Shown here piece by piece: positions 957-41,939 of a stretch of DNA of 64,000 nucleotides. Source of the DNA: Pholiota molesta (taxonomy: Eukaryota > Basidiomycota > Agaricomycetes > Agaricales > Strophariaceae); contig JACGCK010000083.1 in the NCBI GenBank assembly GCA_014925825.1, positions 1 through 64,000 of the forward strand, given 5' to 3'. Numbering within the stretch: the stretch's first letter is position 1; each line of letters starts with the position of its first letter. The notes under the pieces were generated by a model. It was not told the DNA's origin. It was given only the letters and a program-made list of their open reading frames with translations, and did not search any database. The position numbers and the translations under genes were made by a program.

Positions 957-999
957 CTAGACGACATGTATGGGTCGAAATTGATCTAGTTTCTCCTTA
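957..999 (-). other. Separated native 3' coding end of the dynamin gene
   Basis: Read on the minus strand, this flank continues the dynamin frame that is interrupted at 8946-8948. Joining the two sides through one copy of the TA duplication gives ...RLFRIKEKLDQFRPIHVV followed by TAG at 957-959. The added residues are charged and heptad-like, as expected for the end of a GTPase effector domain. The segment is now detached from its gene by the 7.9-kb insertion at 1000-8945. Confidence 0.75.
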
Positions 1000-1017
1000 C
1001 AGCCTTTTGCATAATAA
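1000..1017 (+). repeat. Left terminal inverted repeat of the mariner-type element, outer part
   Basis: The outer 18 bp of the left repeat are identical to the outer 18 bp of the right repeat (reverse complement of 8928-8945). The Harbinger element follows at once, and the left repeat resumes at 4426. The TA target duplication is at 998-999. Confidence 0.8.
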
Positions 1018-1170
1018 GAGTCTGTTCGGTTGCGGTTAGACGGCCGAATTATGATTATGGCTAGCTAGACCGGTGTTCGCCGGTATAGCTGATGGCTAGC
1101 CAGCTAGCCACGGGCCGGTGCGCGGCTTATTCTCACGTTCGCGATTGCACTGATCTCGCGCTGATAATCA
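1018..1170 (+). repeat. Left inverted repeat of the Harbinger element
   Basis: The 153 bp match the reverse complement of 4270-4422 with a handful of substitutions. The repeat contains an ATG at 1092 whose frame runs into the transposase gene. Confidence 0.9.
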
Positions 1171-1196
1171 TACCTCTCAGCCAATCCACCACTTCC

Positions 1197-2543
1197 ATGC
1201 CCCGCATTGACCTAGAATCGAGGCGGAAAAGCTTGATAATGCTGGCAGCATATGCTGTCCATGCTGCAGGTGTGGCTACAACTCTATATTCTGCTCCACT
1301 CTACTGGAAACAAGATTATCACACATCAAAGCTCTCTGGTGCTGATTGGGTTCAAGAGTTGATCGAGGGACATCCGGATAGAATTTGGACAGAGCTAGGT
1401 GTGCGGCTTCATGTATTTTTGGCATTAGTACATGATCTGCGCACTTTTTGTGGATTCAAAGATGAAAAGGTTGTTAGCGCAAATGAACAAGTTGCGATTT
1501 TTCTTTACATGTGCGTTACTGGTCTTTCAGTGCGACATGTTGGAGAAAGATTCCAGCATGCAAATGAAACTATTTCAAAGTGAGTCCCTTATATCTTTTT
1601 ATTTTATTCAGTACCTTATATTATATATAGATACTTTCTTCGTACTTTACATGCTCTATCATCTGGGACATTTTACAACAAATATGTGATGCTTCCCCGC
1701 ATTGACGATCCACCATCCAATCTCATTCGAAATAATCCAAAGTATTGGCCGTTTTTTGCAGGAGCACTTGGTGCAATTGATGGAACACACATAAATTGCT
1801 GTCCATCTTCAATTGACCGACATGCAATGCGCAACCGCAAAGGAGGAGTTTCCCAAAATTGCCTTGCCTGTGTTTCATTTGAAATGAAGTTCCTGTACTT
1901 TCTTAGTGGTTGGGAAGGATCTACGGCAGATGCAACCATGTACAGCCGTTCACGTTTTGTCGACTTTCGTGTTCCAGCTGGAAAATACTATCTTGCAGAT
2001 GCTGGATTTGGCATTTGTGATGCTCTACTTGTTCCGTACCGTGGTATTCGATACCATTTAGCTGAGTGGGGCCGTGCTGATACACAGTACGTTTCTATTT
2101 TCTCCTCTTTTCTCATATTAATCACAAGTTGGTATAGACCTGCTAATAAAGAAGAACTTTATAATCTTCGACATGCATGTGCACGAAATGTTGTGGAAAG
2201 GATTTTTGGTGTGGTCAAGAATCGATGGTCAATTCTTACCCGTCCTCCACACTTCAATATGTCGGTCCAAGCAGAAATTCCACCCGCACTTGCTGCGCTC
2301 CACAATTTTATTATGGATGTTGATCCAGATGATTACAAGGAGTACTTGGCTGACAATGACGAAGAAGATGGTCTTGGTGATTTTGATCCAAATCCTGGAC
2401 ATCCTCACGAAAGTATTTATGGGGATCTTGCAACAAGTGTTGTCCAACAAGCAGAAAAGGAAAGGGCAACAATATTCCGAGACGAGGTTGCTCAAGCAAT
2501 GTGGCGACAATATCAAAATGTATTAGCGCAACGTAATAACTAG
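1197..2543 (+). CDS. Harbinger-type DDE transposase (DDE_Tnp_4)
   Basis: This nuclease cuts and inserts the Harbinger element. Exons 1197-1579, 1631-2086 and 2138-2543 are separated by two 51-bp GT-AG introns and give 414 aa. The catalytic acids are visible: D178 in GAIDGTHI, D251 in LADAGF and E300 in VVERIFGVVKNRW. The N-terminal 120 residues carry the helical region seen in fungal Harbinger proteins (VSANEQVAIFLYMC, VRHVGERFQHA). The C-terminal ~75 residues are acidic. I chose the ATG at 1197 because the upstream in-frame ATG at 1092 lies in the terminal repeat. No stop or frameshift is seen, so this protein may still be made. Confidence 0.85.
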
Positions 2544-2640
2544 ATATCAAGGTATATAATGAATGTAGGATATAACGAGTGTGAGATTGTAAAGAATGGA
2601 TTAAACGTAGTGAATGGGAAAATATAAGGAGAAAGAATGA

Positions 2641-3646
2641 TTATGCATTTTGCAGTTGAACTTCTACCCAACGCCGACGTAGACCGTTATCCTTGAGGGC
2701 CATGTAAACATCAGCTGCAGATTTATCACGACGAAGCAGATCAATGAACGTAATCATATCGGAAGGATCAAGCCACGTCATCTCATTCTCCTGAGCAAAT
2801 ACAACCGCATTGGTGCATCGTATGGGAGTAGGGGGGAGAACATTGGATGGTGGGGCAAGAGCAGAGCTAAGCATCTCACCGAAACCTGCGAGGGATGTCG
2901 ACATATTGTACAAGGCCTCTGCACCATGGGACCTGCGATTTCGTTTTGCTGAAGGGTGAGAAGGAGTTGCAGGTTCCCGCACGTTTGCGAGAGCTCAAGC
3001 TACAGGAGTAACCTAAAAGATCAATCAGTTATAATTTATACAGAAATTAAATAAATTAAAACCTCGTCGTTTGTCAGAAGGCAAAGGCTCCTCAATATCC
3101 CATGCAGGAGAGCCAGGTCTATCAATTGGAGAAAAGGTGTCTGGCTGGGAGTCAACGGAGGGAGTTTGCGAGATGGAGGCAGGGTGGAAAACGTTAGCGC
3201 CTGTCGTAGTATTCGGCATGATATCAGCAATCTTGACACGGTGGGGCCATCCCTTGTTGCATAAGGCCTTGCCAAGGGATTTAGTTGATGTATGCATCCC
3301 AAACCGACGCGCTCTCAGGAGTAATACTAGCACCGGTTTCGTCATCCCAATGCCAGCCTGAATTGTTCATGAGTGCAGCGATAACTTTGAATGTTTTCCG
3401 AAGCTATCAACATGTTCAGCATATGTATTAGCTAGGAATGAAGGTAACGTACGGCAGCCCATTTGTTCTGGCAGCTTTTCCAATCCTTCACATGCTTGTT
3501 CGTGCGGAACGGAACCATATGCTTCTCAAGGCGGGTAAAGAGAGGTTTTTGAAATTACCTCCATCACCAGCCTCGGAGCGGTGCTCATGGAGAAAATCGA
3601 CAAGAGCGACCTCCTCGGCATGTGTCCAGGTCGATGAAGGAGCCAT
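2641..3646 (-). pseudogene. Harbinger companion Myb/SANT-like DNA-binding protein, frameshifted
   Basis: The second gene of Harbinger elements normally encodes a Myb/SANT-like protein that recruits the transposase to the element ends. Here the minus strand from ATG 3646 gives MAPSSTWTHAEEVALVDFL, a typical SANT-like start. It continues in other frames with KDWKSCQNKWAAVR, WHWDDETGASITPES and NKGWPHRVKIADIMPN, and ends with LRRRWVEVQLQ near 2641. The block ending in DAYIN runs into TAA near 3275, and the continuation lies in another frame, so there is at least one frameshift. Some frame changes may be introns (a GT donor exists near 3436), but this one has no intron signals. Confidence 0.65.
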
Positions 3647-4269
3647 ATGGACAGGACAATGGGACGAGATGAGAGAAGGGGGATAAAAGAGAGCGAGGCA
3701 TGGACTCACTCTTTTATATATGAAAACACCCAATCCAATGTGTTTTTCGGTTCATATTACCATCAAACGAGGTGTGAGGACTGGACACTTAGGTACTTGT
3801 ACAGAGGACTGTAGATCACATGATAGTCACATGTTACCATGTAGATACAGCCATCCAGCTGTATTAGATAATCAGATTTACCTTTAACCTTTACTTGAAG
3901 GACGAATCCACACACTGCCGGTATGACCAGATAGTCTACTCCCTACCATGGGTCATATGGGGGCACAGGCGAGCCTTACCACGCAGATCTCTCTGGCTGA
4001 GCATCCATCCCTGCTTGCCTGGTCAACGGCTCACATTGCCCTGGATAGGGTCACATTCCTCCTGAGTAGGATTACAACTCGCTCTCCCTGGATCTCCATC
4101 CAGCCCTCTTCCCAGGTCTCCTTCAGCCTTCCCTGAAGTCCCCTCGAATGCCAGATGCAGACCACAGGCATCACACGAGGCATAGACAAGTATAGAGAGA
4201 CCACAGGGTCTCTCCGCAGTGAAACATTGTGTTTTGAATGTGTTTTGGATGAGAATGAGGCAGAGCGAG

Positions 4270-4422
4270 TGATAATCAGCGCGAGATCAGTGCGGTCGCG
4301 AACATGAGAATAAGCCGTGCACCGGCCCGTGGCTAGCTGGCTAGCCATCAGCTATACCGGCGAACACCGGTCTAGCTAGCCATAATCATAATTCGGCCGT
4401 CTAACTGCAACCGAACAGACTC
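4270..4422 (-). repeat. Right inverted repeat of the Harbinger element
   Basis: This is the counterpart of 1018-1170. TAA (4423-4425) follows as the duplicated target. Confidence 0.9.
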
Positions 4423-4425
4423 TAA

Positions 4426-4482
4426 ACTGAACACGACGAAGATTTTTGCATGATCATGTGACCATATTCCCACAGCCAAACA
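4426..4482 (+). repeat. Left terminal inverted repeat of the mariner-type element, inner part
   Basis: These 57 bp are collinear with the reverse complement of 8871-8927 with 11 mismatches and no gap. They complete the left repeat after the nested Harbinger insertion. Confidence 0.8.
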
Positions 4483-4499
4483 AAGCGCCCGTCGGTTAG

Positions 4500-4645
4500 A
4501 TAACAACAAGCTTTATGCCCGCCGCTACGCGTCGGAGGTTCGCGCTTCGCGCTCCCCTCCTGCTTCGCTTTGGGCAACAGCTTGCTGGGGCTGCGCCCCT
4601 GGACCCCCTTTGAGTCGGCGCCTTGCGCCTCCGTACATAATCCTT
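4500..4645. repeat. GC-rich block with nested short hairpins inside the mariner-type element
   Basis: A sharply GC-rich block sits in an AT-rich surround just inside the left repeat of the large element. It is built from short inverted motifs, for example CGCGCTTCGCGC-like, GGGGCTGCGCCCC and GGCGCCTTGCGCC. No reading frame is supported. It may be a subterminal protein-binding or structural region, or a remnant of another repeat. Confidence 0.4.
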
Positions 4646-4839
4646 AGAGATAAGTAACATATCCTCTGAATTAGGCATGAAAAAGTCAGAATTGAGCGAA
4701 ATTTTAGTAGAGTTAAAATTTTTGAGAGCTCATAAGAGTTATACTTCCAGCTCTATACCTGTAGCTGGCCAAAAGTAAAAAGAAAAGAGAAGCAAATATT
4801 TAGAGGCTTATTGATAGTGCTTTTTGGCTGTTTTGCCTT

Positions 4840-5204
4840 AGCCTTATTTTATACCTTTAATAATATATGGGCCAGAGCTACAGCCTGGCCCATTCTTCTG
4901 AAGATAATACTGAAGTACTCAAAATATGCAACTCTCCTATTAAGGTGCCATTTTAACCAATTCAAAACTTCCCATTGTATTTTTCTTCTGAGAATTTTTG
5001 GGCCAGAGCTTTGCCCTGGCCCATTCTTCCAAAAAAAAATACTGAAGTGCTCGAGATATGCAATAATCCTTTGCAACTAATTTAAGTACTTTGAATCTGG
5101 AATCCGTAGTGGCGATAGCGCATCTCGTGCGTCTTTTAAACCACTTCGAAACTTCCCATGTATATACTTCTAAGAATTTTAGGGCCAGAGCTTCGCCCTG
5201 CCCA
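4840..5204. repeat. Three diverged ~130-180 bp tandem units, each with a GGGCCAGAGC...GGCCC hairpin
   Basis: Hairpin cores lie at 4869-4892, 5000-5023 and 5182-5204. The sequence around them is also repeated: an AAACTTCCCAT segment and a TTCTRAGAATTTT segment precede cores two and three, and a tract like CATTCTTC...ACTGAAGT follows cores one and two. These are subterminal repeats within the large mariner-type element. No coding capacity is apparent. Confidence 0.6.
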
Positions 5205-5993
5205 CTTTATATTGCTGCTCATATCTATAACAATAGGTTTACTCTGAAGTAGCTTAGTTACTTATCTTGTTAGTGGTCTGTATCACAACACACTGTCACA
5301 CTTGTACTTAACTGTACTTACCAATGTTATAGTTATTAGTTATCAGCTAAGACTGAGGGATTATAATATATAATAAAACATTGATATATAAGAGACTGGA
5401 ACTGGAGGATGCGACGTTGGAGAGACATGCAGATTTGGCACAGATTGAACACGAACATTGCGCGCGAACATGCACAGACATGCACCGTGCGCTGAGGCAC
5501 AGCCACTATTACGTAATTAAGACTCCCATCAAAACCCATCCTCTGTTCATATCTTTGATCAACAGGTGATGCTCAGGTTCCTCTGCTGCTAGTTTTTCTT
5601 GCAATGTACTTCAATCTATAGCTTTATTTCTCAACAATGCGTACATACACTCTACTCTGTACTATAATCACCATAAACCAGTGACTTAAAGGAGGAAAAT
5701 CAGGAGAATCCTGGTGCACTTTTCAGGTATGGTGAGCGCCGGCTGAGCCTCGTTTTCCATCCTGCAGCCTTGTGCTTGATGCAACGTTGATGTCTAACGA
5801 CTTTATTACATGTACCAAGCTGCATGTTCTAGGGATGCGAAGATGCTCTGCTGCAGAGAAAGGTTCGGGAAATGGGTATAAAAGGTGCACTTTTTGTTCG
5901 ATCTCTTCACCAGGTCAACTCCTCCCACCTGTGCTTTCCACTGTCTCCTCGTCTCACCATCTTCTCATATGTCTTTGACCCGTTATAAGTACT
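5205..5993. other. Non-coding interior of the large element
   Basis: This part is AT-rich with no supported gene and is probably the 5' region of the passenger gene that starts at 5994. Short open frames here have no family features. Confidence 0.4.
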
Positions 5994-7654
5994 ATGAACG
6001 AGCCTGATGGAACTCCGTTCCAGGAGCTTGTCGTCTTTCCTACGCTCACACCTCAACTTGCTCGCCCTCAGAACACACCAACCTTTGGAGGTATTGGTAC
6101 GGCTCCACAGCCTATGGTCGGGGAAAATAATGGCAAGTCTCACAAGTCACTCACCATATTTTGTCTTCATATAACTTACCTACCTTTTTGTTGGTCCAAT
6201 GGCAGACAAAAATCTACCTATTGGTGCGTAACACATTCCAAATTTCTTTGCTTGTATTAACACTATTTTACCAGTTCCAGAGTGCACATTTTATTTTACG
6301 GCAGTCCTACATTATCGCAAAGCATCCACTGGCCAAGGTGCGAAGTCAAAACCAAAGAAAGCCTCGGAGACCAAAGGGGGACCTGCAATTCCGTTGTTCA
6401 GCATGTCTCGCTGTGACTTTCTCCAGGATGTGTTGAAACTATACGACCTTCATCAGCTCTTCCAGCTGTCTGTGATTTCAGGATTCCCTGTTGAGATATC
6501 TTGGCCTGGCTCGCCATAAGTGTTATTATCGTCCATCTTAATCCAAAATTATCATATTCATACGTATTCACAGTGGCGGAAAGACAAATGCCCCAACTAT
6601 TCGTGACAACAACAAGTTCAAGACTATTCTGGATCAGCTATACCAGAAGAGGACCGTTAAAAATATTCTTATCAGCTTCGATGTTGATCATCTTGAGCCG
6701 TTCCATATCCGTTCTGCAACAGTCCTCAATCCTCGTTTGGCACCATGGTCCACCAACATTCCAGAGATACGTATGGGTACTCAGGTCTGTTTTCGTGTGG
6801 TCTTCCATTCATTAAATTTCACTGAATTTTCATCCTGAAAGGTTCCGCGCCCTGATGGCTTTGGCTCTGCTGATCAACTGCATTATTATGGATCTGAGAG
6901 AAGAGTGGAAATGTGCTGAACACGACACAGGAGCATGCTATTGAAAAGATAGTGCCCACTTTCCACTCAACCGCTGGAAGACCAGAACTTGGGCCGCTGC
7001 GATTGTACGTCTGTCTATTTTATCTGATAAATAAGATATTTAATCTGCCTATAGGCCGCTAATGAACCTGGGGTTACAATGCGGGATCCACCATCGACGC
7101 TGTTCCGAGTTGACAATGCTTTGACTTCACGGGTCATCAAGTCTCGTGGAAGATCAGGGCCCCGTTCTACTCACCAGCATACAGCTAGTGATTCTGCGAT
7201 CGAAGCTGGTACGATCATGTCAGCATTCTTTACCTCTCTCTTGCAGCAGAACCATCTTATGGCTCCGCTCACCCCAGCTCGCAAGCACCATATTAGCCCA
7301 ATGTCATCTCCTGCAGGTCCTCCTGATTTGTCTTCACCCATCTCTATTCCTGAGGATAATCTTCCGATTGTTCTCGAAGCTTTCGGACATGCAAAATCTA
7401 TTCCTGAAGAAGCTATAGATCTTGCAGTAGCTGGTCTCATGGAAAAGAGATACACTGCTGATACCCTCTCATTTGCAGGAGTTCAACGCCTCGCAGAGAT
7501 TACCCAGTTTGCTGAAGGTGATGCTGCACAACTGATAAAATTTTCCAAGGAATGGACGGGCAAAGTTGAACGCAAACGAGCTTGCCTCGCCGTACCCGTA
7601 CCTGGATCTAGCCGTCATCAGGTCTTTAACACATATTCTCGATACACTGTTTGA
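5994..7654 (+). pseudogene. Decayed passenger gene of unknown function inside the mariner-type element
   Basis: I do not recognise a named domain. Joined exons are 5994-6132, 6206-6223, 6275-6515, 6574-6784, 6842-7004 and 7055-7654. The frame runs through MSRCDFLQDVLKLYDLHQLF, EISWPGSP, NILISFDVDHLEPFH and VPRPDGFGSADQLH. Three lesions are visible. The donor after 6515 reads ATAAGT, where GTAAGT would join the frame perfectly. A -1 frameshift follows QLH near 6884. A TGA interrupts ...HDTGACY(stop)KDSAHFPLNRW near 6943. The last exon is open and Pro/Ser-rich, then helical (DNLPIVLEAFGH). The first intron has a GC donor. The gene is convergent with the transposase and lies between the same inverted repeats, so it is likely cargo of the element. 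Confidence 0.6.
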
Positions 7655-7721
7655 TACACACTCTCTCTATTACTCTACATTCTTTTTACTACGCGCTTTC
7701 AAATTACTTTACATTCATCTA

Positions 7722-8822
7722 CTACTCAATATAATCGTCATTATCTGGTATATATCCACAGTCCCGGAACCACCCTATCGCTTTTGAGTGGGTTACAGAT
7801 TCTACGGCTTGATGGATCAACCAGGGTAATTTTTCGGGACTATCATACTCTTCTTCGTGACGTCGAAGCCATGCTTTGACGCTTGAAAATGCCTCTTCAA
7901 TGGGATTAAAATCCAGCGAGTATGGAGGGAGGTAAACCAAACGGGCACCTATTTATCACATGAATAGCTTTGGAATAGCTTTACATTGAATCTAGAGTTC
8001 ATTACTCACCGCAGTTGTCCTCAATCATAGATCTAATCTCTTTGTCATGGTGGATTGCACAGTTATCCATAACCACAATGCTCCGCCTTCCCGGATATGG
8101 ATTTAAAACAGGAATCTAAAGCAAAGATGAGGATTTCAATGGAGATAATTGAAATAGGAACATACAACTTGCTGTTGGAGAAAAAATATGAATTGATCAC
8201 GGTTGATGGCACCTTCGAAGATATCCAGTGCAATGATACCATCGATTGTAAGGGCTGGAAGAATTGAATAGTGGGTGCCTCGAAGGAACGTTCCACATCG
8301 CACACATGGTGTTCCACGTCGAGCCCATCCTGCAAGCCACTGTGTGCTGAGATTATTGACAGCACTTTCATCAAGGAAAACAAAGAGATCGGGGCCGTCG
8401 TACTGTGCCATATTTCCCTCCCATATTGCCCTGAGTAGATCATTTCGCTCTTTGGCCTCCTTGGATACCGTCTTTCTGCTGAAGTCGAGACGGTCGATGG
8501 CACGTTGGATCAATGCTATTGAAACATTGATACTGCGATCTTCCACCAGCTTTGCATGAATCTCGTCCAAATAAATGGTTGGTTGCGACTCTAGCAAGGT
8601 GTCGATATATGTACAATCTTCAGCATCAAGCAGCCGTGGTCGCCCCAAATGGTGTCCGAAGGGATTTATTGATGTACCATATGTATTGCTGTACTTTAAA
8701 ATAGTGGCAATTGTTCCAATTGAACAGCCTGCTACGTCAGCAAGCTTTCTATATGGCCAATGGTATTTCGTACGCCACATTACTACCTGATCGCGCAAGT
8801 CTTTGGAGAGAGGCAGAGCCAT
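7722..8822 (-). CDS. Tc1/mariner-type DDE transposase
   Basis: This is the transposase of the large element. Minus-strand exons 8166-8822, 8010-8115 and 7722-7948 join in phase to 329 aa. Residues 1-60 form a paired-like helix-turn-helix (YRKLADVAGCSIGTIATIL), followed by the linker GRPRLLD. The catalytic acids are D151 in FVFLDESAVN, D236 in VVMDNCAIHHD and E272 in FNPIEEAFSSVKAW, which leaves 35 residues between the second and third. This matches the DDE_3 superfamily. No stop or frameshift is seen. The gene is near the right inverted repeat, transcribed inward, and tail-to-tail with the passenger gene. Confidence 0.85.
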
Positions 8823-8870
8823 GGTGAGTGCGGAGAGCGACTGATGTGTTATCTAGGCGATAATCACTCA

Positions 8871-8945
8871 TGTTTGGCTGTGGGAAAGCAGTCACATGAT
8901 CACTCAGAAATCTCGGTCGTGTTCAGTTTATTATGCAAAAGGCTG
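8871..8945 (-). repeat. Right terminal inverted repeat of the mariner-type element
   Basis: This 75-bp repeat ends at 8945 and is followed by TA (8946-8947). It is an uninterrupted counterpart of the left repeat, so it also shows the empty-site sequence of the Harbinger insertion (one TAA instead of two). Confidence 0.8.
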
Positions 8946-11752
8946 TAATCCGGAAGAGACGAATCCTCCTATCATTCAAATACTGACGCTTCCTTTCAAT
9001 GACAGGGTCCTCTTTGAGAAGACCTTGAATGTCCAATTTTCCCTCTTCGGAATCTTTGAAAAGGCCGCTGAGCAAGGTTTTCGCGATTGCAGAAGCAAAA
9101 TTCTGGTTAAGCTCGTGTTCGATGGTAAGAGGCACGTAGTCAATAATTCGCTGAAGCAAAGTATTGTTATTTGACGTTGGCAATGATAAGAACTCGACAC
9201 TTACCTTGTAGGCGACCTGGAAATATGCTTGGACTTTTGCAATGATCTTCAATTCCTCTTCGATAGTCCACGTTGTAGGAGTATCCTCTGATTCAAAGCT
9301 CAGATGGGGTTTTGGGAAAAAATGAATGACGGTCGGTCGCGGAGGTTTTGGGCTTGGTAACCTTGGTTCAATGGATGCAGAGGTCACGTAAGGCCTGCGA
9401 GGGGCTTCGTATCGTTCTTCGTGGGGTTGTAACCAAGCATTTCGTGTGGCTTTATACTTGTCAACCCATTTCTTTTCCTCTGATGCCAGCAGATCGAAAT
9501 TCTGAGTAAAAAGAGGGTAACTTTCTAATGCCAGAATTTTTTGGACACTAGAAAGGGCTTCCTCGATACATCTGTCCCGTTCTTGAAGGGACAGATCACT
9601 GGATAGCTATATTAGAAACATCAAGACATCGACCACGTTCGAATTAAACACACCTGGCATATTTTTCGAGATCCTTGTATTGTCCGAAATGTTTATGGAG
9701 CAAGTTTTTCAAGAGAATATCGAGGTTACCGGTAACATCCTCGAAACAGGATATAGATGGTGTGGGCCAAAGACCCGTGTATTGCTTGATGAGGACTGTC
9801 GTCGCTTCAAAAGGTATCTCCCCAGGGAGCTCCCACCCAATCAATCTATATCATAGGGGTAGACGGTGAGCAAGGACCAATAAATCATGATAGTCCCTCG
9901 TACTGTTTGATGATATGTCGGACGTCGGACAAGCTGCGCGACGCTGTGCGGGTGTCGACCAGGCTGCTGCCATAGGTTTTATCATCCTCGAACGGCCGGA
10001 AATCCGGTGTCGTCATCATAATGTCGTTTTTATATCGAAGGTACCGAGCCTTGTTCATCTGGATGAATCTCCTGTCCATTCGGTCTCCTCTCACCGCCTC
10101 CGACACATCTCTGCAAAATGCGTTGACACGGAGGATAATTTCCGTCGATGGTTCGGCGTTGGACAGGGGCGGCAGACGCGAAATTTCCTGGTGACATAGA
10201 GCAAGCTCAACCTCCACCGCCTTCCTGAGATCTGGAAGGCTATCGACGATGATGATATGAGTAACATAGCATTGGCATAGATAACCATACCAAAACCTAC
10301 TTTCTTTCAATGCGATCTACCAAGAGCGCGCTGATGCTGCTCACGAAGTTGGGAATACCAAAACGGGTCCGATCCACCATCTTGTCCCATGGCGCGGTCG
10401 TGTCAAAAAAATGGGCGGCATTGCGTTGGGCTTCGAGAGGAGTGATTTTACTCTCGCGTTCGTCGTCGTCTGGGAGTCGGACACAATAGTAGCCATGCGT
10501 GGTGACGATTTCGCGACCCTCGAGAACTGCTTTCCATTTTTCTCGTCCTCCGGTTGAGCCTTTCGTCAGAGTATCGGGCTTAGTGAGAACGCCTATAAAC
10601 AACCAGGATTACTGATTGGGTAATGACGATAGTAGAATTATGATATCGTACCGATGGTGCGGTCCTTTTCTGGGTCAGCCTTTCCAGCGAGAGTCACGGC
10701 TTGCATATTCTCGATGTCGTCTGAAAGGTCATAATGAACACTGGATTAATGTGAAATAGAATGTATATGTACCGCTCATTGGCATTGCAATGACTATCAG
10801 GGTATTTTGTCCAATCACGTAGCTCTCGACTAACGTACGGACGATGGTGATCAAATCTTCATCGGCATTCTGAATTAAACCTAAAATACGGTGTTCAAAA
10901 CCAAACATTGTCACAATATATGAACCTAAAAGACAAGCTCACCAGGTAAGTCCACGAACGAGAGATCCGTTGCTTCTGGATCCTGCACCTTCACATGTAC
11001 AACATTCTTTGAAAACGGAAGGATATCCACGTCGCTCTTCGCATTGTTTCGCAACTCGGCAGCCGTCAAATTGACAAAGAAGCTCGGAGGACGATGCGGA
11101 CTGAGAATCGCAGCCTGTGCACGCCGTATCCACAGCTCAACCGCGTCCTTGTCCCCGATTAAGGCCGGGCCGAAAGGCTCGGTTCTGTTAGAGCCAAGGG
11201 GAGTCCCATCCGCGTTGTACTCGTACGAGATCTCAATTCTGCAGGACCACGAGCTAACATCGCTTGACATGGTGCATACCATAGGGCATCTATAGATAGT
11301 ATGAGTCAATATCCACCATAGTTGCGCTGTAGACGGGATTACCGTGTACAAGTTCCACTGTCCCGTGGTACATTGATCTAACAACAGATTGATAAGGGGT
11401 GAAAATATATATCTGATTACAACCTACACCGCTAACTGCTTCCACTAAAGAGCTCTTGCCGCCTGTAGAAGTTCAAATGAAGTATTTGACATGGATAGAG
11501 CGGTATAGCTTACTGGACTGCCCGCCAATGACAACAACTCGAGGCAGGTCAAATATCGCCTCCGCCCTATTCAGAATCGTTTAGACTATGTGCACAGTCT
11601 GAGAGGGTCAATGAAACGGCTTACCCCAGGTCGAGAAGGTCGTTATACAGACCCATCAAGTCTGTGCACTTGCGGGCATAGTCGCTAGAGGAGATCGTCT
11701 TGAGGTCGCCAGAGGACTGCGAAGAAGCAGAATGTGAAGTGAATATTGACAT
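8923..11752 (-). CDS. Dynamin-family GTPase, C-terminus altered by transposon insertion
   Basis: This is a large membrane-remodelling GTPase. Twelve minus-strand exons (11625-11752, 11514-11566, 11428-11462, 11343-11377, 10943-11289, 10773-10880, 10652-10720, 10301-10592, 9904-10239, 9654-9845, 9205-9598, 8923-9150) join in phase to 738 aa. GTPase motifs are present: G1 GGQSSGKSS (~56-64), the G2 region PRDSGTCTR, G3 DLPG (~196-199) and G4 LTKPD (~261-265). A stalk follows, then a Pro-rich linker (SPKPPRP) and a C-terminal GTPase effector domain (DYVPLTIEHELNQNF to EDPVIERKRQYLNDRR). No PH domain is evident, so it is closer to Mx/Vps1-like proteins than to classical dynamin. The mariner-type element enters in the last exon, so the protein now ends TAFCIIN instead of the native tail at 957-997. 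Confidence 0.85.
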
Positions 11753-40116: not shown

Positions 40117-41939
40117 GTCGCCAAATATACTTGAAACGATGATGTCTTGTTTAAAGAATACATCAACTCTCCCAAGCTTGGACCAACACGTTAAGCACTA
40201 TCGGAAAGGTCGGTGGTCAAGAAGTTCCTGAGGCAATGATGAAGTTTGACATTAGAATGAGGGTATGAGCTTCGATGAAGTATTTTCACATTGTGGCATG
40301 ATGTACTGGGATGCACCTCCGTGTCTGGCCGGTAAACATGTATCGAATTGGCGGTTCGAGGCTCTGTATTGAGAGAATCATAGCTATAACTGATATCGAT
40401 CTCACTCAAGAAGCATTGACTTAGGATCACTCTGTTTACAAGCAATTTTTCCATCAGTGCTATTGTATCTCATGTTTTTCTATTCACCCAAGAAGCATTG
40501 ACTTAGGATCACTCTGTTTACAAGCAATCCTTCCATCAGTGCTACTATATCTCATGTATTCCTCATTCCGTGTATACCCTATAGCGCAGGCAACCGCGAG
40601 TTCGATCATGAGAATGTCGGCTTAACCAAGAGCCAAGAAAGTCTCACCATATAAGTCCAGGAAGCCAAGACTGTTATTTTATTTGGGTGTGGTACAGGGT
40701 ATTGTTCAGTATCCTGCGGAGCTACACGAAAATACATGGTGTGTCAAATACATAGCTCCATGCCCTGCGCGCCCGATAATTTTCCTATCGTTGATAACGA
40801 GCGTCAATAATTTTTACTACCAAATATGTAAAATCAAACACGACAAATGCGATACAAGCGGCAACATACTCTGATTGAAGTTCGAACAAATCGGAACACC
40901 AGGAGTTCGGAATTTGTACAAGATCAATAAAAGGTTTTTGCACACACACCTTTTCGAGCGAAAAGTGACTCGTGAATATATGAAGTGTTGAAAAGTCATA
41001 TAACAACGCGTTTGAGAACTTAGGAATTTCTCAAAGCCCTATGTGAAAATATATCGTTGTTTTGTCAGAATCTGAAGCTTCTGAAGTCCTACCCATGTAT
41101 TGCGTTTCCAATTACTCGTTCATCTCTGGCCAATGTTAAACCAGATGTGCGTAAGTTTTCAACTTGTGGATAAGCTATAGATTAGCTTGAGATTAGCTAT
41201 GCTTGAGCTGTGCAGAGATATGCTTCATCAATCGAAATTAGAACCGGTTGATCGGCAATTGCCGGGATAGGAATACCCGGCTCCGTGCTGTCTCTTCCCA
41301 ACTGCATGGCTGAAGTTACGACGTGAACGCACCACTGTCGTGGATATGATCTGTTTCGTGCAAGCACCCTACAAAATTTGGCATCTTCTTTGACAGCTGC
41401 GGCCTAGGCCTGTCACAGATGCACTCGAGTATGTCATGATCTTAAATTCTTCTTTCACCCACCCTAACTGAAAATCAGACAAATGGAACTACGGAAGCCA
41501 TTGTCCACCGATGAGGATGCTTGTCATCTCAAAAGCAGTCATCCAGAGAACAAGTCTTGTTATCTAGTACGATATGTCTCACGTTTCGGGGTCCAGTGGA
41601 AAGCTAGGCATTTCGTATTTGTGTCTATGTTGGAGACGAAGGTCACAATTCCAGGTAAGCCTCACTATTCTCAACTTGAGTGAAGATCATGAAATTTTAG
41701 AGTATTGATCTAGATATGCCTTCTCCCATCTCGGTCCTCAAAGATCGCACGAATGATCTGCTATCTTAGTACTTACCACTGCGTTGTCATCGGCGCTATT
41801 TGGACAGTGACTCAATGTTTCAACGTCCGACCTTTTTTTGTTTAGGTGTCGACTTCTATTCCATGCCACAGATTGCTCCCAACGGAACGGTGAACAGCTA
41901 GCGTGGCTTCTGTGGTCCCATCCAAACATGCCCTGGGAA
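40117..41939. other. Intergenic region with a 69-bp tandem duplication
   Basis: No supported gene in 1.8 kb. The left end is the promoter region of the FNR-like gene. The duplication at 40407-40557 is the only structured element seen. Confidence 0.45.
40407..40557. repeat. Direct duplication of a 69-bp segment
   Basis: 40407-40475 and 40489-40557 (offset 82 bp) are nearly identical, differing at a few bases. Each begins CAAGAAGCATTGACTTAGG and ends ATCTCATGT. Confidence 0.9.

What the first reader, a model, noticed from the sequence alone, without database searches (positions are those of the whole stretch)
1000..8945. 4.5-kb Tc1/mariner-type element with a passenger gene
Inverted repeats of 75 bp (64 of 75 identical, no gaps), TA on both sides and an intact DDE_3 transposase define one element. 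It also encloses an unrelated multi-exon gene (5994-7654), a GC-rich hairpin block and subterminal hairpin repeats. Mariner-type elements usually carry only the transposase. A cargo-carrying subfamily in basidiomycetes would be worth describing.
Basis: partly seen in the sequence, partly recalled or inferred. Interest (0 to 1): 0.75.

Follow-up and report, generated by a model that had tools for sequence, protein, structure and literature searches.

The report
Two-gene Tc1/mariner-type transposons in a mushroom
A jumping gene in the mushroom Pholiota molesta carries a second gene beside its transposase, and most of its relatives that were examined in the same genome carry a version of that second gene in the same place, which suggests a long-standing partner and not a stray passenger.

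Summary
The element is real: TA-flanked inverted repeats (66 of 75 identical) enclose an intact DDE_3 transposase and a second gene. Host: Pholiota molesta. The second gene is broken in the window but intact in the other haplotype (no Pfam match).

It is not a one-off. Of 13 distinct DDE_3 loci that I held, 11 carry a relative of it, always tail-to-tail with the transposase (four of them only by an iterated profile, E 6.6e-5 to 0.085). C135 (1,510 bp, 76-bp perfect repeats) and a decayed fragment lack it. Genome-wide searches with four partner genes found copies only beside transposases. Two relatives (C30, C168) have empty sites with a single TA, so the two-gene unit is what moved. Nearest-relative pairs agree for both genes (Mantel r 0.92, p 0.0014; rank version not significant).

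Best reading: a two-gene Tc1/mariner-type lineage with an old partner gene, probably an accessory DNA-binding or assembly protein (function inferred). Synteny in other species could not be tested. Eight paper searches showed no description.

The parts
998..999 (.). TA, left target-site copy
   Evidence: sequence; TA duplication itself shown only for the relatives C30 and C168
1000..1017 (+). left terminal inverted repeat, outer part
4426..4482 (+). left terminal inverted repeat, inner part (cut off from the outer part by the Harbinger insertion)
1018..4422 (+). nested PIF/Harbinger element, 3,405 bp, 154-bp inverted repeats, TAA duplicated at 1015-1017 and 4423-4425; not part of the Tc1-type element
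   Evidence: (DDE_Tnp_4)
5969..7654 (+). second (partner) gene, broken copy; intact allele is P0001 on C113
7722..8822 (-). DDE_3 transposase gene, three exons, open
8871..8945 (-). right terminal inverted repeat
8946..8947 (.). TA, right target-site copy
   Evidence: sequence
8948..10310 (-). host dynamin-like gene whose 3' end the element adjoins or interrupts (not part of the element)
   Evidence: PF02212 GED E 3.4e-7; PF01031 E 2e-5, below its cut-off

Best explanation
The window holds an old copy of a two-gene Tc1/mariner-type DNA transposon: inverted repeat, partner gene, transposase gene facing it tail-to-tail, inverted repeat, about 3.5 kb between TA dinucleotides. The same architecture recurs in related elements of this genome, and in two of them the whole two-gene unit is present in one contig and precisely absent, with a single TA, in another. 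Shown: the architecture, the TA insertion of the unit in C30 and C168, and the paired recurrence of the two genes. Inferred: the DDE_3 protein cuts and pastes at TA, and the partner protein (N-terminal domain, Cys/His motif, PP motif, proline-rich linker, helical C-terminal region) is an accessory transposition protein that binds the ends or helps assemble or regulate the transposase, as second proteins do in Harbinger, MuDR or CACTA elements. I put about 0.5 on accessory transposition, 0.2 on anti-silencing or regulation of the element, the rest on other roles. The window copy looks inactive: the left repeat is split by another transposon in each haplotype and its partner gene is broken.
For: Ends and genes. 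Intact allele and family of 13 proteins. A profile of these 13 proteins, built without any other Pholiota locus, hits C23 (1.6e-7), C389 (1.7e-5), C30 (2.4e-5), C181 (8.7e-5), C192b (1e-4) and C168 (7.5e-4), each beside a DDE_3 gene and tail-to-tail with it. An iterated profile adds C192a (6.6e-5), C322 (0.0022), C59 (0.0027) and C144 (0.085), same arrangement, with no hit at E up to 0.5 in 99,427 bases of other held sequence. Profile-profile match of the family to the C181+C30 partners: probability 97.2, E 3.6e-11, 387 columns; reversed and 8 shuffled targets at most 0.2. Genome-wide searches with four partner genes found only copies beside transposases. Ends of relatives located: C30, C389, C23, C168, sharing CAG-NNN-TTT with the window in 8 of the 9 ends aligned as CAGC and in all as CAG (which left C168 out). 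Empty sites: C4 for C168, C1 for C30. Co-variation: Mantel r 0.92, 7 of 5,040 permutations. Gaps between the two genes 22-172 bp.
Against: C135, with perfect 76-bp repeats, has no partner gene, so the gene is not needed for every relative to move. The decayed C2 fragment has none either. Spearman version of the co-variation test 0.14, p 0.26. The C144 partner is below significance by profile (0.085). Ends were weak at C181 (28 of 75) and not found at C192b. The 45-row tree needs three changes of the label, so one origin is not shown.
Confidence: 0.78

Rival explanations
1. True passenger or cargo: a host gene captured by one element and carried along without a role in transposition.
For: C135 moves, or recently moved, without it; no recognised transposition domain; the window copy has decayed while the transposase is open.
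Against: Recurs at 11 of 13 loci in one position and orientation; nearest-relative pairs agree for both genes; no copy found elsewhere in the genome as a host gene.
Confidence: 0.1
2. The partner protein protects the element from host silencing, or regulates it, and does not take part in the cutting reaction.
For: Fits an old, fast-evolving gene that some copies (C135) can do without; anti-silencing second genes are recalled from plant VANDAL elements (recall, no call).
Against: Nothing here tests it; the partner has no match to any named family.
Confidence: 0.2
3. Chance or nesting: two unrelated elements or genes happen to lie between the repeats.
For: This locus does contain two later insertions.
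Against: Same arrangement at ten further loci; precise empty sites for two of the two-gene units.
Confidence: 0.02

Closest known systems
Tc1/mariner (IS630-Tc1-mariner) DNA transposons
   Same: DDE_3 transposase, 34-35 residues between second D and E in most rows, TA target, terminal inverted repeats
   Different: A second, unrelated gene facing the transposase; typical members carry the transposase alone, as C135 does here
Tec/TBE elements of ciliates
   Same: Tc1/mariner relatives with further ORFs, one of them a recombinase (PMC7325037, passages seen)
   Different: The partner here matches no known family; relation to Tec/TBE ORFs not tested
Kolobok with KolX and other accessory proteins
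   Same: A DDE transposon superfamily in which lineages carry distinct accessory proteins (PMC9587614, passages seen)
   Different: Another superfamily; no sequence comparison made
MarorTcMar-18 of Marasmius oreades
   Same: A mariner-type family in an agaric, 3,972 bp long, near the two-gene size; an active 1,120-bp derivative without domains (PMC9674265, passages seen)
Ant1 of Aspergillus niger
   Same: Tc1/mariner-type fungal element holding a second sequence (an amylase-like piece); recalled, no call
   Different: A captured host gene piece, not a recurrent partner family; recalled, no call

Membership tests
Tc1/mariner superfamily | DDE/D transposase of the DDE_3 type with DD34-39D/E spacing | tested here: met
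   PF13358 E 8.9e-28; spacing 34 or 35 in 11 of 13 stitched rows, C2 fragment 32, C144 not matched by the pattern
Tc1/mariner superfamily | TA target with TA duplication | tested here: met
   Window: TA on both sides only. Relatives: single TA in the empty sites of C30 and C168, the two tested
Tc1/mariner superfamily | Terminal inverted repeats | tested here: met
   66 of 75
Tc1/mariner superfamily | Placement in a named subfamily by phylogeny | not tested
   The tree held only database relatives and own loci, no named reference elements
Two-gene lineage described here | Partner gene tail-to-tail with the transposase | tested here: met
   11 of 13 loci held; absent at C135 and C2; C346, C105 and C242 not inspected
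Two-gene lineage described here | Same arrangement in other species | not testable with these tools
   13 partner proteins in Agaricomycetes and metagenomes, no genomic context; no shared contig length with the 120 of 451 transposase hits listed; scans found no locus
PIF/Harbinger (nested element) | DDE_Tnp_4 nuclease, TWA duplication, inverted repeats | tested here: met
   PF13359 E 1.4e-21, TAA on both sides, 154-bp repeats 96%
PIF/Harbinger (nested element) | Second Myb/SANT-like protein | tested here: inconclusive
   One of the candidate ORFs (113 aa) had no Pfam match; the other was not searched

The most novel reading that the evidence does not exclude
A widespread lineage of mushroom Tc1/mariner-type transposons is built on two proteins, a DDE_3 transposase and an unnamed, co-inherited partner with a Cys/His motif and a helical C-terminal region that is needed for, or steers, transposition; passenger-less elements such as C135 are secondary losses or use the partner in trans.
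Probability: 0.4. Interest if true: 0.8.

Novelty: new variant of a known kind. Interest (0 to 1): 0.64.

Why it matters
Tc1/mariner elements are the textbook one-protein transposons and the source of Sleeping Beauty and mariner tools. A lineage in which a second protein has stayed paired with the transposase would show that this superfamily, too, can depend on or be steered by a partner. It would also explain a family of unannotated agaric 'hypothetical proteins', and offers natural pairs (C30, C168 with empty sites; C135 without the gene) for a direct test of what the partner does.

Tried and rejected
One search compared the repeats with the TAA wrongly joined and gave 34 of 75; one search corrects this to 66 of 75. 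C440 looked like a second copy but is 99.5% identical to the window over 8.6 kb including flanks, so it is treated as a redundant contig of the same haplotype (the script ended with an error after its first, usable table). C113 is treated as the other haplotype, not as an independent copy (95%, same flanks). C7 and C95 carry only a lone right end, 77% over 80 bp, with no partner or transposase. A lone end-like sequence at C168:345112 has no mate within the stretch held.

Contig-length matching between partner and transposase proteins of other species gave nothing among the rows listed. Scans of viral contigs with three partner alignments and of genome contigs with one found no relative. Pfam and PDB sequence searches gave no usable match: the best were SAM_2 and HHH_5 on the C168 partner at 0.07-0.09, below cut-off, and 1go5 at 0.61. 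Paper searches; none listed a description of this second gene. Repbase and most subscription papers are not in that library, so absence from print is not shown.

Partner proteins from C30, C181, C23, C389, C168 and C192b were spliced by hand from six-frame pieces, so their exon borders are approximate, and at C181 a short stretch with stops between two pieces was left out.
Full report
What is in the window. The 75-bp terminal repeats match at 66 positions once a nested element and one TAA are skipped; shuffles reached at most 32. The nested element at 1018-4422 is a PIF/Harbinger transposon with 154-bp repeats, a DDE_Tnp_4 nuclease and TAA on both sides; its repeat also occurs on contigs C610 and C33. 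Taking both out leaves 3,487 bp.

Host and alleles. The assembly has 65.6 Mb in 625 contigs. The intact allele of the second gene is P0001, BJ912DRAFT_1057368 of Pholiota molesta, on a record of 517,191 bases, the length of contig C113. C113 carries the same element in the same place at about 95% identity, without the 1.05-kb repeat, and with its left repeat split by a different insertion, a palindromic element of about 734 bp with CACTG ends (L006:2498-3231). So in both haplotypes the left end is split, each by its own insertion. The element adjoins the 3' end of a dynamin-like gene (GED domain, E 3.4e-7).

The second gene. On C113 it is a multi-exon gene of about 441-446 codons; in the window it is broken in at least four ways. 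Database searches found 13 proteins of this family in all: Pholiota, Russula, Athelia, Peniophora, Laccaria, Rickenella, Suillus, Trametes, Paxillus, Gyrodon, Mycena and two metagenome proteins, with no Pfam domain precomputed. The second search scored only the 7,994 candidates that shared most words. Conserved features are a Cys-x2-His ... Cys ... His motif, a following W-A, a PP pair and a C-terminal region.

Recurrence. The relative at C181 has a full-length transposase (41% identical) and, facing it, a gene of the same build. Searching the genome with that gene found itself and C30 only, and the C30 copy again lies tail-to-tail with a transposase. A profile of the 13 database proteins alone, run over every locus held at that point, hit C23, C389, C30, C181, C192b and C168 besides the window locus, every time next to a transposase and facing it. 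An iterated profile added C192a, C322, C59 and C144; C144 rests on E 0.085 and on reading the translation. Control sequence of 99,427 bases gave no hit at E up to 0.5 with any of five profiles; the same lists do hold a few spurious weak hits at transposase loci, for example C181 at 0.088 on the wrong stretch. In sum, 11 of 13 distinct loci with sequence in hand carry the partner (C608, C113 and C440 counted once; C144 and C85 taken as alleles, which was not tested). C135 and the C2 fragment do not. Three further DDE_3 matches (C346, C105, C242; the last two below the cut-off) were not inspected.

Ends of the relatives. TA-flanked repeats were found for C30 (46582-49951, 43 of 75), C389 (138019-141074, 47 of 75), C23 (57164-60146, 42 of 75) and C168 (345348-349315; arms of about 365 bp with 2 mismatches), and weakly for C181 (37154-41058, 28 of 75); coordinates include both TAs. 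None were found for C192b; for C192a, C322, C59, C144 and C2 only about 1.5 kb on each side was held, and no pair was seen there. C135 is the passenger-less contrast: 76-bp perfect repeats, 1,510 bp with both TAs, transposase only.

Mobility. The joined flanks of C168 match contig C4 along their whole length at 92%, with one TA where the element sits. The joined flanks of C30 match contig C1 over 493 of 502 bases at 90%, again with one TA. Both sites tested gave an empty counterpart. The mobile unit therefore includes the partner gene. For the window element itself no empty site was sought, because both haplotypes are filled.

Co-inheritance. Among the seven loci with strong partners, the closest pairs are the same for both genes: C30 with C181, C23 with C389, C168 with C192b. 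The Mantel correlation is 0.92 (7 of 5,040 permutations as high); the Spearman version is 0.14 (p 0.26), since partner scores outside these pairs are at noise level. In the 45-row transposase tree C135 is nearer to the window element than C30 and C181 are, which suits loss in C135, but the label needs three changes and the partner status of the database rows is unknown. In that tree C168 pairs with C192a and C192b with P0099, so the C168-C192b pair holds among the seven loci only.

How it may work. The DDE_3 protein should do the cutting and pasting at TA, as in other members of the superfamily. The fixed tail-to-tail placement, the shared descent and the Cys/His motif suggest an accessory protein that binds the ends, assembles or regulates the transposase; this is inference. 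Anti-silencing is the main rival. C135 shows that at least one relative did without it, or used it in trans.

What is known. Further ORFs in Tc1/mariner relatives are on record for ciliate Tec and TBE (PMC7325037, passages), and accessory proteins define lineages of Kolobok (PMC9587614, passages). pogo elements with one or two ORFs encoding the transposase are noted in PMC7386202 (passages). PMC10799480 (passages), a screen of fungal TE co-option, did not mention it in the passages seen. A 3,972-bp mariner-type family in Marasmius oreades is near the two-gene size (PMC9674265, passages), but its gene content was not seen. Eight searches listed no description of this partner gene; the library is partial.

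Noticed in passing
window 1018-4422: PIF/Harbinger element with 154-bp repeats (96%) and TAA duplication; further copies of its repeat on C610 and C33.
   Followed up: partly
window 4507-5557: Dispersed GC-rich, hairpin-bearing repeat with clean edges and many copies in the genome; kind of element not determined.
   Followed up: partly
L006:2498-3231 (C113): Palindromic insertion of about 734 bp with CACTG ends and TGA on both sides, splitting the left repeat of the C113 allele close to where Harbinger hit the window allele.
   Followed up: partly
G000:C7:74210-74233 and C95:46510-46533: Lone right end of a relative (77% over 80 bp), with no mate, transposase or partner in the stretch read for C7.
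   Followed up: partly
G000:C168:345348-349315: Very long, nearly perfect repeats (about 365 bp, 2 mismatches) on a two-gene element with an empty counterpart on C4, which suggests recent movement.
   Followed up: yes
G000:C181, about 40280-40960: Three tandem copies of a unit of about 232 bp between the partner gene and the weak right end.
   Followed up: no
window 8948-10310: Dynamin-like gene whose 3' end meets the element; whether its last codons were changed by the insertion was not settled.
   Followed up: partly
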